Positions 36,568-51,127 of a DNA stretch of 64,000 bases are shown piece by piece (within the stretch, counting starts at the first letter, position 1; each line of letters opens with the position of its first letter). This stretch comes from a candidate division SR1 bacterium (GTDB taxonomy: Bacteria; Patescibacteriota; Gracilibacteria; Absconditabacterales; Absconditicoccaceae), in NCBI GenBank assembly GCA_026397475.1, contig JAPLUT010000006.1:1-64000 (forward strand). Reading direction: 5' to 3'. The notes beneath the pieces are model-generated. The model searched no databases. It had not been told where the DNA came from and saw only the letters and a list, made by a program, of their open reading frames with translations. The translations under genes and the position numbers were made by a program.

Positions 36568-39500
36568 ATGGACAAAAAAATTAATCCGAATTCTTTTATT
36601 ATTCAATCCTTACAGTCTGAGGTTTCTTCGGCGACACCTTTTTCTCGTATTCCTTGATTTATAAAAAAATTTGCGATAACTCAAGAAAATAAAGAAAAAA
36701 TAATTTCTATTCTTTCCTCTCTCGGGGATAAAGAAATCGAGCATTTGGATATGAGAATCCTGAAGATAAAGAATCCCAAAAATGTTTTTGATCCAGAAAT
36801 GTATAACAAAATTCTCCAAATAGAATGATCTCAAGATGAAAAATGAAGGCCTATTTATTCTAAACTTATAGGGCTTGCAAAAGAAATTATCGCGAGTGAA
36901 ATGGGCGTTCCTGTGTATGAAATACTTAAACATATTAAGGCTGATTTGGGAACATGAACTATAGATTCTTCTGAGTTTGATAATCCTCATGATGATCTTT
37001 CCGAGAGTTTTTCTGAAGAAGAAAAAAAGTTAGTAGAACAAGAACAGCAGGCGAGAATTGTTATGAACGCGCTTATTATGGGTGCGGGACATAGGATATT
37101 TGATAAGGTAGAATCAGATGATAAATATCCCAAAGCTATCAATAAAATCAGTCCTGATCTCTATCAGTCCTATTATGATATGGTGTATACCAATCTTAAG
37201 TATATGCGAGAGACAAAGCCTGCTAATCACTCGTCAGGAAATACAGGATCAATGAAATTAGTTACAGAAGAAAAAGAGACGAAGATAAAAATTCAAGCAG
37301 ATATTTTTCCTGTTCTTTTGCATGAAATGGCAAAAGGAGTCGTCGAATATATGGCGTATACGAGGTATAATTCATTAGATCCGAAAATCACTAAGTCTAT
37401 TCTTTCTGTCGATTCTCGTCAGTCTGAACACTGGATGATGTTGATAGGACCGCAGATTTATAAGCAATTATTTTTTCTTATCAAAGAAGCGGTTGCGCAG
37501 TATAGCGACCAAAAGTGACTTCTGGACTCTAAAAACGCAGCTGATTATATTGTTCCTGTGCTTGCTCATATTTTGCAGATGCCAGCAGAAAAGTTTTTGC
37601 AATTTATAGAAAATATTTTGAGAGAAGATCAGTGAGGAGAAAGTCCGATCGCATTGATTACAAAAGTAATAGATGGTATGCACACTCAGTATGAGGCATA
37701 TCTCGCGTCTACTCCTTCGCCAAAAATGGAATTGACCATAGAAAAGATTATGGAACAGCTGACTCGTGAATTAGCTTTGTGAAAAAAAGCTCAGATGTAT
37801 ATCAAATCTGCATTGCCTGATGTACAATATAAGCTTAAAGATAAATGATATGTCTTGTCTGATAAAAAACTTGGAAGAAAAATTGCTGAACATTATATGG
37901 CAAACACAAAAAAGTTTGAATTGTCTGATTTTGTAGATCAGACTTGGGTTATTGAACTTTGAGATGCAATTAGTTTATTCAAAACTACGAGAATAGAGCA
38001 AGCTGCTTTTAGTATCGTACATGAACAGCAAAAGAAATTTCCTAAACGAACGAGAACGCATGATGTAGAAAATATCTATATTCATCCGAGATTTCCTTTG
38101 TCTGCCCTTGAAGAAGCTAAAAAAAATATTCATCCCCAAGTGCTTGAAGATATTGATAATCAGGTTGCTGAACTTGTTCAGAACTGAAGTATTTCGCAAT
38201 GGCTTCAAGATCATGACACGATGAATACAACATTGAGTACGCTTACAAAAAAATATATTACTCTGGATGATGTCATTCCGGATTGCCTTGTAGAACGAGA
38301 GGATAATCGATGACTGTATGAACTTACTAATCTTGAACAACTCAAAAGAGAGGCGGGAGTGATGGGTTGAAACTGTGTAGCAGGATCTATAGATCGTGTT
38401 GAAAATGGTACTTTGAGAGTTTTCTCGCTTCGTCACTGAACGCAGTCTCACTGGACCATTTGATATGTTCCTCAGAGTCAGACTATCAACCAAGTAAAAT
38501 GATATATCCATCAGAAAAAAAATGCTATACTAACAAGAGATGATCCTGATTACGTTCAGGTTGTACAGGCAGTAAATTATCTTATTGCTCATTTTCCTGT
38601 CAAAGCTGTAAATGATATGAGCAACGTTGGTTTTAACTTAACAAACAAGTGATTTTTGTCTTCTGCTGATTTTATAAAGGCTGTTAATGAATGAAAGCTT
38701 TATTCTGTTACTTTGCTTACTCAATGAGCTAGAATATATTTATCTTATGAAGATATTCATATTCTTGAAAAATTAAGTTTAAGAAATATAGGCTTCATAG
38801 ACGTTCAAGTTTGATCTTTCCTGATCAAATATGGTGTTGTAAATAATAAAGTAGAAACTACTTTTGTTGATGAAAATATTAATCTCAATGATTTAGATCA
38901 TTTATCTTTGTCTTTAGAGTCCTGAAATGATGTATTTACAAAAATATGACCCGTTACTTGATGTCTTTTAACTATGAAGAAGCATCCGTTTTTTGATGCA
39001 TATGATGACTATCCTGTTTTTTGATTGCCTGGACTCTGAGATGACAGGGGATTGGTCCAAAAAGGTAAAAAATATGGAGTAGTAGAAAGAGATGGAGAAT
39101 CCTTCAAAGAAATACTTCCTTGTGAGTATGATGAAGCTCCGCAATTTTGATTAGCTGGTTTGGAAGCTGATGAGGCAGTAGTTATACAAGATAAAAAATA
39201 TGGTGTTATTAAGCTAACCGAATCTTCTTTTACGGTAATATTGTCTTGTGAGTATGATGAAATTCCTCAGCTTCAGTGACTAAGAGCAGGTGAAGTTTGA
39301 GTAAAAAAATATTGAACTTATGGAATCATAAAAAAGATTGATGGAGAGTGGAAGGAGATTTTGCCTTGTGAATATAATTCTTTTCCTGTTTTTTGAACAT
39401 CTGGATTGGCTTCAAATGAAGCTCGAGTTAAACATATAGATAAGCTTCCTTTTTATAGTCATAATGGCTACAAATTTATCCTTATCCAAAGAAATGGAGA

Positions 39501-49492: not shown

Positions 49493-50074
49493 ATGAAAAA
49501 AGAGGTATCTGGAGGAATGGAAGAGGAACTTGATGAAAAACTTCAAGCAGCTCAACAAGGTCAAGACGATAAAAAATATCAAGAACTTGAAAATAGAATA
49601 GCCCAACTTGAAAAAGAAAAAAAGGAGCTTGAAGAAATAACTAAAAGATCTCAGTATGAGTATGTAAATCTTAAAACTGATTTTGATAGATATCAAAGGC
49701 AAGTAAAAGAATCCAGTGATTCTATGCAGGTAGATTCTCTTTTGTCTGTTGTAAAAAAGTTTTTGCCATTTATCGAAGATCTTAGAAAGTCCCTTGAAAA
49801 TCTAACTGACGAACATATGGAGGATCCGCTCACCAAATGAGTTCAGATGGTATATAATAAATTTTTAAAGACACTTGAACATTTGCACATCAAGTCCATT
49901 GAATCTTTGTGATTGACTCCTGATTCCTTTTTGCACGAGCCCGTAAGTGTTGAGCCTGTTACCGATGAAAAATTCAAATGAAAAATAATTAAAGAATTTG
50001 AAAGGGGATTTGTTTATATCAAAGGTGATGATAAGAGAGTCATTATAGCATCTAAAGTCATTGTCTGACAATAA
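49493..50074 (+). CDS. grpE: GrpE-like nucleotide exchange factor, 193 aa
   Basis: It releases ADP from DnaK. The N-terminus is a long charged coiled coil (about residues 20-60) and the C-terminus is a short beta-domain with VSVEPVTDE, FERGFVYI and VIIASKVIVG, as in GrpE. The start at 49493 is chosen for family length; an in-frame ATG at 49442 would overlap the end of vanY. One TGA Gly is in the body and one before the final Gln. DnaK and DnaJ are not in the window. Confidence 0.85.
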
Positions 50075-50121
50075 GCTTGAATCTGGGCTGAGAATTGCTA
50101 CTCTTGGTCCACGCAGGCTAT

Positions 50122-50202
50122 GCTCAGGTGATGGAATGGTATACATGTACGATTGAGGTTCGTATGCCGTAAGGCTTGGGGGTTCGAGTCCCCTCCTGAG
50201 TA
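50122..50202 (+). tRNA. tRNA-Leu (GAG anticodon)
   Basis: Acceptor stem GCTCAGG/CCTGAGT (50122-50128 and 50195-50201), anticodon stem TACGA/TCGTA around TTGAGGT (anticodon GAG), a long variable arm TGCCGTAAGGCTTG typical of class II tRNAs, and T-arm GGGGTTCGAGTCCCC. The discriminator is A (50202). No CCA is encoded. Confidence 0.92.
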
Positions 50203-50228
50203 AGTTACTTTTAAATTCAACATTTATA

Positions 50229-50450
50229 ATGTTTGTTGTATATGCCATAAAAAGCAAAGTAAAAAACTTTATCTATGTATGAATGACAAGTAATTTATCT
50301 AGAAGAATTAATGATCATCAGAATTAAAAAAATTTATCAACCAAATGATTTGCTCCTTTTGAATTGATTTATACAGAGGAGTGTGCGACATCATTCGAAG
50401 CAAGAGAAAAAGAAAAATATTGGAAATCTTGAGTTGGTAAAGAAAAGTAA
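50229..50450 (+). pseudogene. GIY-YIG endonuclease, broken by a nonsense codon
   Basis: The frame from ATG 50229 reads FVVYAIKSKVKNFIYVGMTSNLSRR then INDHQN, stop, KNLSTKGFAPFELIYTEECATSFEAREKEKYWKSG. This is a small URI/UPF0213-type GIY-YIG nuclease: the expected pattern at the stop is HN-G-K-STK. The TAA at 50325-50327 replaces what would be a Gly; a TGA Gly needs one base change to become TAA. All other parts are in frame to TAA 50448-50450. It lies between tRNA-Leu and a duplicated 3' half of that tRNA. Confidence 0.82.
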
Positions 50451-50463
50451 AAACTAAAATAGC

Positions 50464-50562
50464 TCGTATGCCGTAAGGCCAACCTTCGGTTGGTAAACTT
50501 GGGGGCGAGCCTACCTGACGGTAGGTAGACTTGTCTACCGGAGGTAGATCCCCTCCTGAGTA
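50464..50562 (+). repeat. duplicated 3' half of tRNA-Leu with two inserted palindromes
   Basis: TCGTATGCCGTAAGGC, CTTGGGGG and CCCCTCCTGAGTAA repeat the tRNA-Leu sequence from its anticodon stem to its 3' end. Two extra pieces interrupt it: CCAAC-CTTCG-GTTGG in the variable arm and, where the T-loop was, a stretch with stems CTACC/GGTAG and TCTACC/GGTAGA (about 50507-50546). It lacks the 5' half and cannot make a tRNA. It matches an attachment-site duplication later invaded by palindromic repeats. Confidence 0.8.
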
Positions 50563-50571
50563 AATACTTCA

Positions 50572-50680
50572 AAATATAATTTAAAATTTTAAATTATAAA
50601 TTTGAAATTTTAAAGTTTGTATTTACAGTTTTAAAATTAAAAATTAAAAATTGTAAATTTTAAATTGTAAATTGTTTGTT
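50572..50680. repeat. low-complexity AT spacer
   Basis: Words such as AATTTTAAATT, TAAAATTAAAAATTAAAAAT and TTGTAAATTTTAAATTG recur. It lies directly before the yqeY-like gene. No coding potential. Confidence 0.45.
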
Positions 50681-51127
50681 ATGTCTTTACTAGAACAGCT
50701 AACGAGTGATTATAAAGAAGCTATGAAAAATAAGAATGAGACCAAAAAAAGCGTATTGAATCTTATACTTGCCAAGATAAAAAATAAAAAAATAGAACTC
50801 CAAAAAGATCTTGAAGATATTGATATCCTCGCTATCATCAAAAAAGAAGTAAAAGAAATCCTTGAAACTATGGGATTCTTAGAAAGGGCTAACAAAACTG
50901 AGGAAGTAGAGATAGAGAAACAAAAAAAACTTTTGCTAGATTTCTATCTGCCTGCTACCATGAGCAAAGAACAAACAACAGAACTTATAAAAAAACTTAT
51001 ATCTGATCACAATATTACGGACCTTAGAACTCAGAGGGGATTACTTATGAAAGAATTGATGGCTAATTATAAATGACAGGTTGATGGGGGATTGGTAAAC
51101 GAAGTCATTAATCAACTTGTTGCTTAG
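50681..51127 (+). CDS. yqeY: GatB/YqeY-domain protein, 148 aa
   Basis: The pattern of YqeY proteins is complete: an N-terminal helical region with LTSDYKEAMKNKNETKKSVL, then EILETMGFLERANKTEEVE, LLLDFYLPATMS and the C-terminal helical GatB-tail-like domain (TQRGLLMKELMANYKGQVDGG). Gly in YKGQ is TGA. The family is widespread; binding of tRNA or of proteins related to GatB is suspected. It ends at TAG 51125-51127 and precedes the pilin-like gene by 21 bases. Confidence 0.85.

What the first reader, a model, noticed from the sequence alone, without database searches (positions are those of the whole stretch)
50122..50562. tRNA-Leu with a GIY-YIG nuclease pseudogene and a duplicated, palindrome-riddled tRNA 3' half
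tRNA-Leu(GAG) is followed by a GIY-YIG nuclease relic and then by a second copy of the tRNA from its anticodon stem to its 3' end. The arrangement (intact tRNA, mobile-type gene, duplicated tRNA end) is that of an integrated element with att-like repeats. The second copy has two hairpin-forming insertions in the variable arm and T-loop.
Basis: partly seen in the sequence, partly recalled or inferred. Interest (0 to 1): 0.75.

Follow-up and report, generated by a model that had tools for sequence, protein, structure and literature searches.

The report
Nuclease genes that colonise tRNA genes
A broken tRNA copy beside a small nuclease gene turns out to belong to a widespread family of tiny mobile elements that settle in tRNA genes of many bacteria and leave behind tRNA pieces whose anticodon arm has been swapped for a meaningless hairpin, while one intact tRNA survives next to them.

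Summary
In a TGA=Gly (SR1-type) genome, intact tRNA-Leu(GAG) is followed by a broken 80-aa GIY-YIG gene and a 3' tRNA copy with two hairpin inserts. A congener has the empty site; another has the same unit with the gene open.

It is one member of a family. In the window's bacterial family, 30 of 33 GIY genes of this type lie within 200 bp of a same-strand tRNA gene, against 0 of 24 of the two other small types. Across phyla, 69 loci touch 15 amino-acid classes of tRNA. Fragments of the neighbouring tRNA flank the gene in 48 of 69 (null 1.3%). In 49 fragments spanning the anticodon arm, the arm is replaced by a hairpin of nearly equal length (stem of 6 bp or more in 39 of 49, against 4 of 49 in intact tRNAs). 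Protein phylogeny follows the tRNA. Relatives sit inside RNase P RNA and 16S rRNA hairpins.

Best reading: homing-type mobile nuclease genes that split the native tRNA and keep an intact, sometimes foreign, replacement tRNA. It works like fungal mitochondrial mobile ORFs, but in bacterial tRNA genes. Cleavage is untested, and immunity of the intact tRNA is unexplained. I found no report of it in the papers searched.

The parts
50121..50203 (+). intact tRNA-Leu(GAG)
   Evidence: ARAGORN; Rfam RF00005 48.6 bits; identical in G001, which has no insertion
50229..50462 (+). GIY-YIG nuclease gene, decayed: ATG 50229, internal TAA 50325-50327 and TAA 50448-50450, frame ends TAG 50460-50462 (code 25)
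   Evidence: 85% identical homologue without these stops in G005
50464..50563 (+). 3' fragment of the tRNA (from 3' strand of anticodon stem to 3' end), interrupted twice
   Evidence: exact blocks 50464-50479 and 50549-50563; scan scores 32 and 30
50479..50493 (+). hairpin insert 1, after the variable arm
   Evidence: fold; conserved in place in G005
50510..50547 (+). hairpin insert 2, in place of the T loop
   Evidence: fold; conserved in place in G005

Best explanation
The window holds a decayed copy of a small mobile element family whose only gene is an ~80-aa, SLX1/UPF0213-like GIY-YIG nuclease specialised on structured-RNA genes, chiefly tRNA genes. Inferred mechanism: the nuclease breaks an uninterrupted tRNA gene in or near the anticodon arm. 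The break is repaired from a donor copy in which the nuclease gene and an intact tRNA lie between tRNA pieces that act as homology arms. The recipient's own tRNA is left as one or two fragments that lack the anticodon arm, and the intact tRNA carried by or rebuilt with the element keeps the cell alive. Shown: presence/absence at one site, association with tRNAs on the same strand, tRNA-specific nuclease lineages, loss of the native anticodon arm in fragments, purifying selection on the nuclease, and nuclease-free relics. Inferred: DNA cleavage, the cut position, and that the intact tRNA arrives with the element. Not explained: how the intact tRNA itself escapes cleavage, and why the lost arm is replaced by a palindrome of nearly the same length.
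For: Empty site in G001 and several states of one locus in 9 genomes of the genus. 30 of 33 type-C GIY genes within 200 bp of a same-strand tRNA against 0 of 12 and 0 of 12 of the two other small types. In the pooled set, nearest tRNA within 200 bp is on the same strand in 71, opposite in 2, of 158 (two of the 71 are second records of a locus, so 69). tRNA fragments in 48 of 69 at score 45 or more, against 1.3% of 852 mismatched pairings. 49 fragments in 36 loci span the anticodon arm: stem of 6 or more in 39 against 4 of 49 intact arms, Wilcoxon 4e-8. Tree of 69 proteins: tRNA label needs 34 changes against 48.8 shuffled, 0 of 200 as low; a Leu clade (97/84) mixes families. dN/dS 0.05-0.48 in the 18 of 27 pairs above 60% identity where dS was not saturated. 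At Leu(GAG) in G006 and G004 the downstream fragment keeps the acceptor end of the congeners while the intact tRNA has another acceptor stem. Insertions at two different hairpins of rnpB in G000 and G005, both places with short hairpins only in the other 7 of 9 genomes, and one in 16S rRNA.
Against: No cleavage data. The anticodon arm of intact tRNA-Leu(GAG) is the same in all 9 genomes of the genus with and without nuclease, so the intact tRNA is not visibly recoded at the presumed target. In most loci the fragments and the intact tRNA share the acceptor stem, so foreign origin is suggested only in a minority. Three of 8 inspected tRNA-adjacent loci without a strong fragment score showed no fragment by eye (L159, L160, L204). 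The protein has no added DNA-binding domain in Pfam.
Confidence: 0.7

Rival explanations
1. Anticodon-nuclease toxin with decoy RNA: the GIY protein cleaves the anticodon arm of one tRNA species, and the tRNA pieces with an uncleavable hairpin in place of the anticodon arm are RNA antitoxins (type III-like).
For: Replacement hairpins keep nearly the length of the anticodon arm (median segment 21 nt against 20), as a substrate mimic would; tandem repeats of such pieces (three at L076, two at L249); nuclease lineage follows tRNA type.
Against: Relatives inserted in rnpB and 16S rRNA have no anticodon to cut; each piece lacks one strand of the acceptor stem; always at the tRNA's own locus; some loci show no piece; no GIY-YIG RNase is known to me (recalled).
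Confidence: 0.12
2. Hairpin-swapping element: the nuclease, like SLX1, is structure-specific and acts on palindromes; CCG...CGG hairpins are its recognition or terminal sequence, and hairpins of RNA genes are exchanged for such palindromes with or without the gene.
For: CCG...CGG core in 39 of 49 fragment arms against 1 of 49 intact arms and 9% of shuffles; GIY genes in rnpB and in a 16S gene of another family lie between inverted arms beginning CCCCGCACC; profile matches SLX1 structures at 1e-6; G+C hairpins 3.1 per kb near against 1.1 per kb far.
Against: In tRNA loci the gene is not itself between such arms; similar palindromes are dispersed in the genome away from GIY genes (4 of 8 sites); peripheral rnpB hairpins may vary by ordinary evolution.
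Confidence: 0.12
3. Neutral accident: tandem tRNA duplications decayed and caught dispersed palindromic repeats, with a housekeeping GIY gene nearby.
For: tRNA genes and REP-like palindromes are both recombination-prone (general knowledge); fragments occur without the gene.
Against: Housekeeping GIY types show 0 of 24 tRNA neighbours, the other type 30 of 33; replacement falls on the anticodon arm in 36 loci; tRNA-specific protein clades.
Confidence: 0.04
4. Integrase-type tRNA-targeted genomic island with att repeats.
For: Intact tRNA at one end and a 3' piece at the other.
Against: The insert is about 260 bp with one GIY frame and no integrase; in other loci pieces also lie 5' of the gene, or on both sides.
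Confidence: 0.02

Closest known systems
Mitochondrial mobile ORFs with duplicated gene ends (Allomyces atp6; Glomus atp6, atp9, cox2, nad3; PMC3630166, passages read)
   Same: Endonuclease ORF inserted in a gene together with a replacement gene end, native end left downstream; foreign replacement and native remnant told apart by comparison with close relatives; one is GIY-YIG.
   Different: Protein genes of fungal mitochondria, not bacterial tRNA genes; here a whole tRNA stays intact, pieces can lie on both sides, and the anticodon arm of the pieces is replaced by a palindrome.
Phage T4/T6 SegB free-standing GIY-YIG homing endonuclease next to tRNA genes (PMC13096335, passages read)
   Same: Free-standing GIY-YIG gene beside tRNA genes, suggested to cut tRNA-containing DNA; amplification by recombination.
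   Different: Phage; no split tRNA pieces or palindromes in the passages read; a larger protein (recalled).
GIY-YIG insertions in rRNA genes of CPR bacteria (PMC11270868, passages read)
   Same: Non-intron insertions with GIY-YIG proteins in CPR rRNA genes, most insertions lying at stem-loops; L247 here is of that kind.
   Different: [quoted passage not shown] the word tRNA does not occur in the text.
UPF0213/YhbQ-like and SLX1 GIY-YIG nucleases
   Same: Closest solved structures by sequence: 1zg2 (UPF0213) 6e-16, SLX1 1e-6.
   Different: The other small GIY types in the same genomes are not near tRNAs (0 of 24).

Membership tests
GIY-YIG superfamily (PF01541) | profile match above curated cut-off | tested here: met
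   43.7-65.1 bits for three tRNA-type relatives, 53.0 for the rnpB type, against cut-off 22.6; window copy 57.9 bits but broken
GIY-YIG superfamily (PF01541) | conserved Tyr, Gly, Arg, Glu of the active site | tested here: met
   V-Y, Y-x-G, R and E columns invariant in 12-row and 15-row alignments; their catalytic role is recalled
Free-standing homing endonuclease gene | occupied and empty alleles of one site in close relatives | tested here: met
   G001 empty, G000/G002/G004/G005 occupied at Leu(GAG); rnpB sites without the gene in 7 of 9
Free-standing homing endonuclease gene | cleaves the empty allele | not testable with these tools
   needs biochemistry
Free-standing homing endonuclease gene | occupied allele no longer carries the target | tested here: inconclusive
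   fragments have lost the anticodon arm but the intact tRNA keeps it unchanged
Mobile ORF with replacement gene end (Allomyces type) | native remnant matches relatives, replacement is foreign | tested here: inconclusive
   fits G004, G006 at Leu(GAG) and L161; most loci have equal acceptor stems
Integrase-type tRNA island | integrase gene between att repeats | tested here: not met
   insert holds one GIY frame only
Group I intron with homing endonuclease | intron RNA match and interrupted host gene | tested here: not met
   no intron family up to E 5 in 49900-50800 and the tRNA is uninterrupted
Type III toxin-antitoxin | tandem RNA repeats that neutralise an endoribonuclease | tested here: inconclusive
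   tandem pieces seen in L076 and L249; no activity data

The most novel reading that the evidence does not exclude
A natural bacterial cleave-and-rescue drive: a class of minimal selfish elements, one nuclease gene plus a functional replacement tRNA, that destroys the anticodon arm of an essential native tRNA gene, supplies the substitute, and cannot be deleted by recombination between its flanking pieces because that would leave only an anticodon-less tRNA; CCG...CGG hairpins are the working part that the nuclease recognises, and the same machinery colonises RNase P RNA and 16S rRNA hairpins.
Probability: 0.3. Interest if true: 0.93.

Novelty: new variant of a known kind. Interest (0 to 1): 0.85.

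Why it matters
If right, essential tRNA genes of reduced bacteria are recurrently invaded and replaced by selfish nucleases. That would give a concrete cause for tRNA gene turnover and odd tRNA pseudogenes in Patescibacteria, a home for the orphan GIY-YIG insertions reported in CPR rRNA genes, and a natural counterpart of engineered cleave-and-rescue drives. It also gives a set of very small nucleases whose tRNA specificity can be read from their phylogeny.

Tried and rejected
Integrase island, group I intron, chance neighbourhood and a UvrC/YhbQ housekeeping origin were considered and rejected (see rivals and membership). Recoding of the intact tRNA's anticodon arm as the source of immunity was tested at Leu(GAG) and not found. 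Viral contigs: 16 relatives, all weak (best E 8e-10, 34% identity); I did not scan their flanks. The stem-versus-loop comparison of paired palindromes (0 of 124 stem, 13 of 20 loop differences) is biased, because only perfect stems were collected, and several listed pairs are the same two variants; I do not rest on it. Structure prediction was not run. An alignment of mixed types was too variable for a second viral scan. The three-way type split used motifs I chose after reading the sequences and after knowing which loci lay at tRNAs, so it is descriptive, not blind.

Full report
What is in the window. The window is contig C3, bases 1-64000, of a 1.17-Mb genome. Reading frames run through TGA as glycine (code 25). 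A genus-mate's contig is labelled 'candidate division SR1' in a public record (L155, contig of the same length, 65367 bases, as G006:C10), so the genus is of the SR1/Absconditabacteria kind. tRNA-Leu(GAG) is intact at 50121-50203. A GIY-YIG frame starts at 50229 and is broken by TAA at 50325 and 50448. At 50464-50563 lies the 3' part of the tRNA from the 3' strand of the anticodon stem, with two hairpin inserts.

The same site in relatives. The tRNA sits after a grpE-like frame and before the same downstream gene in several congeners (gene names are my reading of the sequence). G001 has nothing inserted. G000 and G005 have tRNA - GIY - 3' piece, with the same two inserts. G002 has 5' piece - GIY - tRNA - 3' piece. 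G004 has 5' piece - GIY - tRNA - 3' piece with different sequences. G003, G006, G007 and G008 have pieces without GIY; the G008 piece carries the palindrome of G002. In G006 and G004 the 3' piece ends like the congeners' tRNA (CCTGAG), while the intact tRNA has a different acceptor stem. In G007 the 5' piece and the intact tRNA also differ there. This is what a foreign replacement tRNA beside native remnants would look like; drift of the intact tRNA is not excluded.

A family, not an oddity. G000 has seven PF01541 matches: UvrC (L003), a UPF0213-like gene (L002), four beside tRNAs (Leu GAG, Leu TAG, Lys TTT, Lys CTT) and one inside RNase P RNA. The 41-genome search matched 24 of the 25 genomes of the window's family (G000-G023; not G024); I analysed 81 GIY places from those 24, not all that exist, since the list was cut ('more matches are not listed') and I left some listed long-frame ones. 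Of the 81, 23 are UvrC or other long proteins. The other 58 are one UvrC fragment and three sequence types of small genes: two types have 0 of 12 and 0 of 12 within 200 bp of a same-strand tRNA, the third has 30 of 33. The three exceptions are two rnpB cases and one gene cut off at a contig end. A random point of this genome would lie that close to a same-strand tRNA with a probability of about 1% (38 tRNAs above cut-off in 1.17 Mb; my arithmetic).

Beyond the family. A scan of species contigs with 12 relatives gave 140 confirmed stretches, of which the best 80 were fetched. A class search found matches in 168 of 192 genomes, and 20 of its 30 loci were analysed, those not already in hand. Among the 80, full-length relatives lie beside tRNAs in 23 of 28; those with shorter matches, mostly Bacteroidota, in 2 of 52. 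Hosts by record title include several candidate phyla of the Patescibacteria, Elusimicrobia (L147), Saganbacteria (L150, L196), Kiritimatiellales (L160, L169) and a Chloroflexi MAG (L214); MAG titles are as deposited. Pooled: 158 small-type loci, nearest tRNA within 200 bp on the same strand in 71 and the opposite strand in 2. Two of the 71 are second records of one locus (L151, L155), leaving 69, which touch 26 isoacceptors of 15 amino acids. In tRNA clusters the label is the best-scoring neighbour and may be wrong in a few.

The pieces. Aligning each intact tRNA with the masked flanks gives a piece of score 45 or more in 48 of 69, against 1.3% of 852 pairings of a tRNA with another locus's flanks. 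At score 40, 39 have an upstream piece, 24 a downstream piece and 14 both. Upstream pieces mostly run from tRNA position 1 to about 50-62; downstream pieces from about 8-20 to the end. The region missing from both is the anticodon arm. In 49 pieces that span it (36 loci) it is replaced by other sequence, mostly a palindrome; the segment has a median of 21 nt where the tRNA has 20. Stems of 6 or more occur in 39 of 49 against 4 of 49 intact arms (means 6.5, 4.5; shuffled 3.3). A core CCG...CGG is in 39 of 49 pieces, 1 of 49 intact arms and 9% of shuffles. By eye, weak-scoring L052, L066, L069, L157 and L161 also hold such pieces; L159, L160 and L204 do not. In L161 the acceptor strands of the two pieces fit each other and not the intact tRNA (read by eye).

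The protein. About 80 aa, PF01541 only apart from weak T5orf172 matches; below cut-off for the NCBI group I intron endonuclease model. Closest solved structures are UPF0213 proteins and SLX1. A tree of 69 proteins needs 34 changes of tRNA label against 48.8 when shuffled (0 of 200 as low). A clade of ten Leu-associated proteins (97/84) and a Lys-rich clade each mix the window's family with others. Columns are few and many forks are open. Of 27 pairs above 60% identity, 18 gave a usable dN/dS, from 0.05 (window copy against G005) to 0.48. The window gene was therefore under constraint until recently.

RNase P and 16S RNA. In G000 the GIY gene lies in a hairpin at the P12 position of rnpB between arms CCCCGCACCAAATTTAG / CTAAATTTGGTGCGGGG. 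In G005 a relative lies in a hairpin near the 5' end of rnpB between nearly the same arms, and the P12-position hairpin of G005 keeps similar arms without the gene. The seven other genomes of the genus have short hairpins at both places (P names are my reading). In L247 a relative lies inside a 16S rRNA gene between 15-nt arms that begin CCCCGCACC as well. [quoted passage not shown]

Mechanism. The data fit a homing-type cycle in which the nuclease acts on the uninterrupted gene and the unit is copied in, with the tRNA pieces as homology arms. The closest precedent in operation is the fungal mitochondrial mobile ORF that brings a replacement gene end and leaves the native end behind (PMC3630166, passages). 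Phage SegB is a GIY-YIG gene beside tRNAs implicated in cutting tRNA-containing DNA (PMC13096335, passages). The survey of the superfamily (PMC1564403, passages) asks whether further members may be molecular parasites and has no tRNA-neighbour observation in the passages returned. Steps shown are gain/loss, specificity, arm replacement and constraint; steps inferred are cleavage, its site and the source of the intact tRNA. The main gap is immunity: intact tRNA-Leu(GAG) has the same anticodon arm with and without the element.

Novelty. Eight searches of the open-access library returned no listing that describes GIY-YIG genes colonising bacterial tRNA genes with palindrome-bearing tRNA pieces; I read listings and abstract starts for these, and passages of four papers. 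Most subscription journals and all bioRxiv preprints are missing from that library. I file it as a new variant of a known kind (nuclease-driven gene-replacing mobile ORF), with the palindromic anticodon arms as the part without precedent known to me.

Noticed in passing
G000:C7 near 38490-38563 (L132 2791-2864): A tRNA with anticodon TCA, called SeC by ARAGORN; with TGA read as glycine it is more likely the tRNA-Gly that reads TGA.
   Followed up: no
L266 1501-2161 and L264 1200-1890: RNase P RNA genes carrying a GIY-YIG gene in different hairpins in two related species, with a further hairpin sharing the same CCCCGCACC/GGTGCGGGG arms in both.
   Followed up: partly
L247 1305-3101: A 16S rRNA gene with a GIY-YIG gene inserted in a hairpin whose arms begin CCCCGCACC, as in rnpB of a distant relative.
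   Followed up: partly
L248 near 1-620: A GIY-YIG gene flanked on both sides by hairpins with CCCCGTGAGATA arms and no Rfam match around it.
   Followed up: no
L243 (G132:C23:5383-5921) and L229 (G131:C6:84018-84529): Tandem duplicates of the unit GIY gene plus tRNA 3' piece (two copies about 300-330 bp apart).
   Followed up: no
L131 near 601-820, L133 after 799, L146 after 2441 (genome G000): tRNA pieces beside tRNA-Pro(TGG), tRNA-Val(GAC) and tRNA-Glu(TTC) without a GIY gene, probably relics.
   Followed up: partly
G000:C2:6558, C2:156417, C3:137570, C8:90255: Dispersed CCCGCT(AA/TT)AGCGGG palindromes away from tRNA genes; 8 sites of the pattern in all, none for the reversed control.
   Followed up: partly
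window 50570-50674: A+T-rich inverted and direct repeats right after the tRNA piece (45-nt arms, 80% complementary).
   Followed up: no
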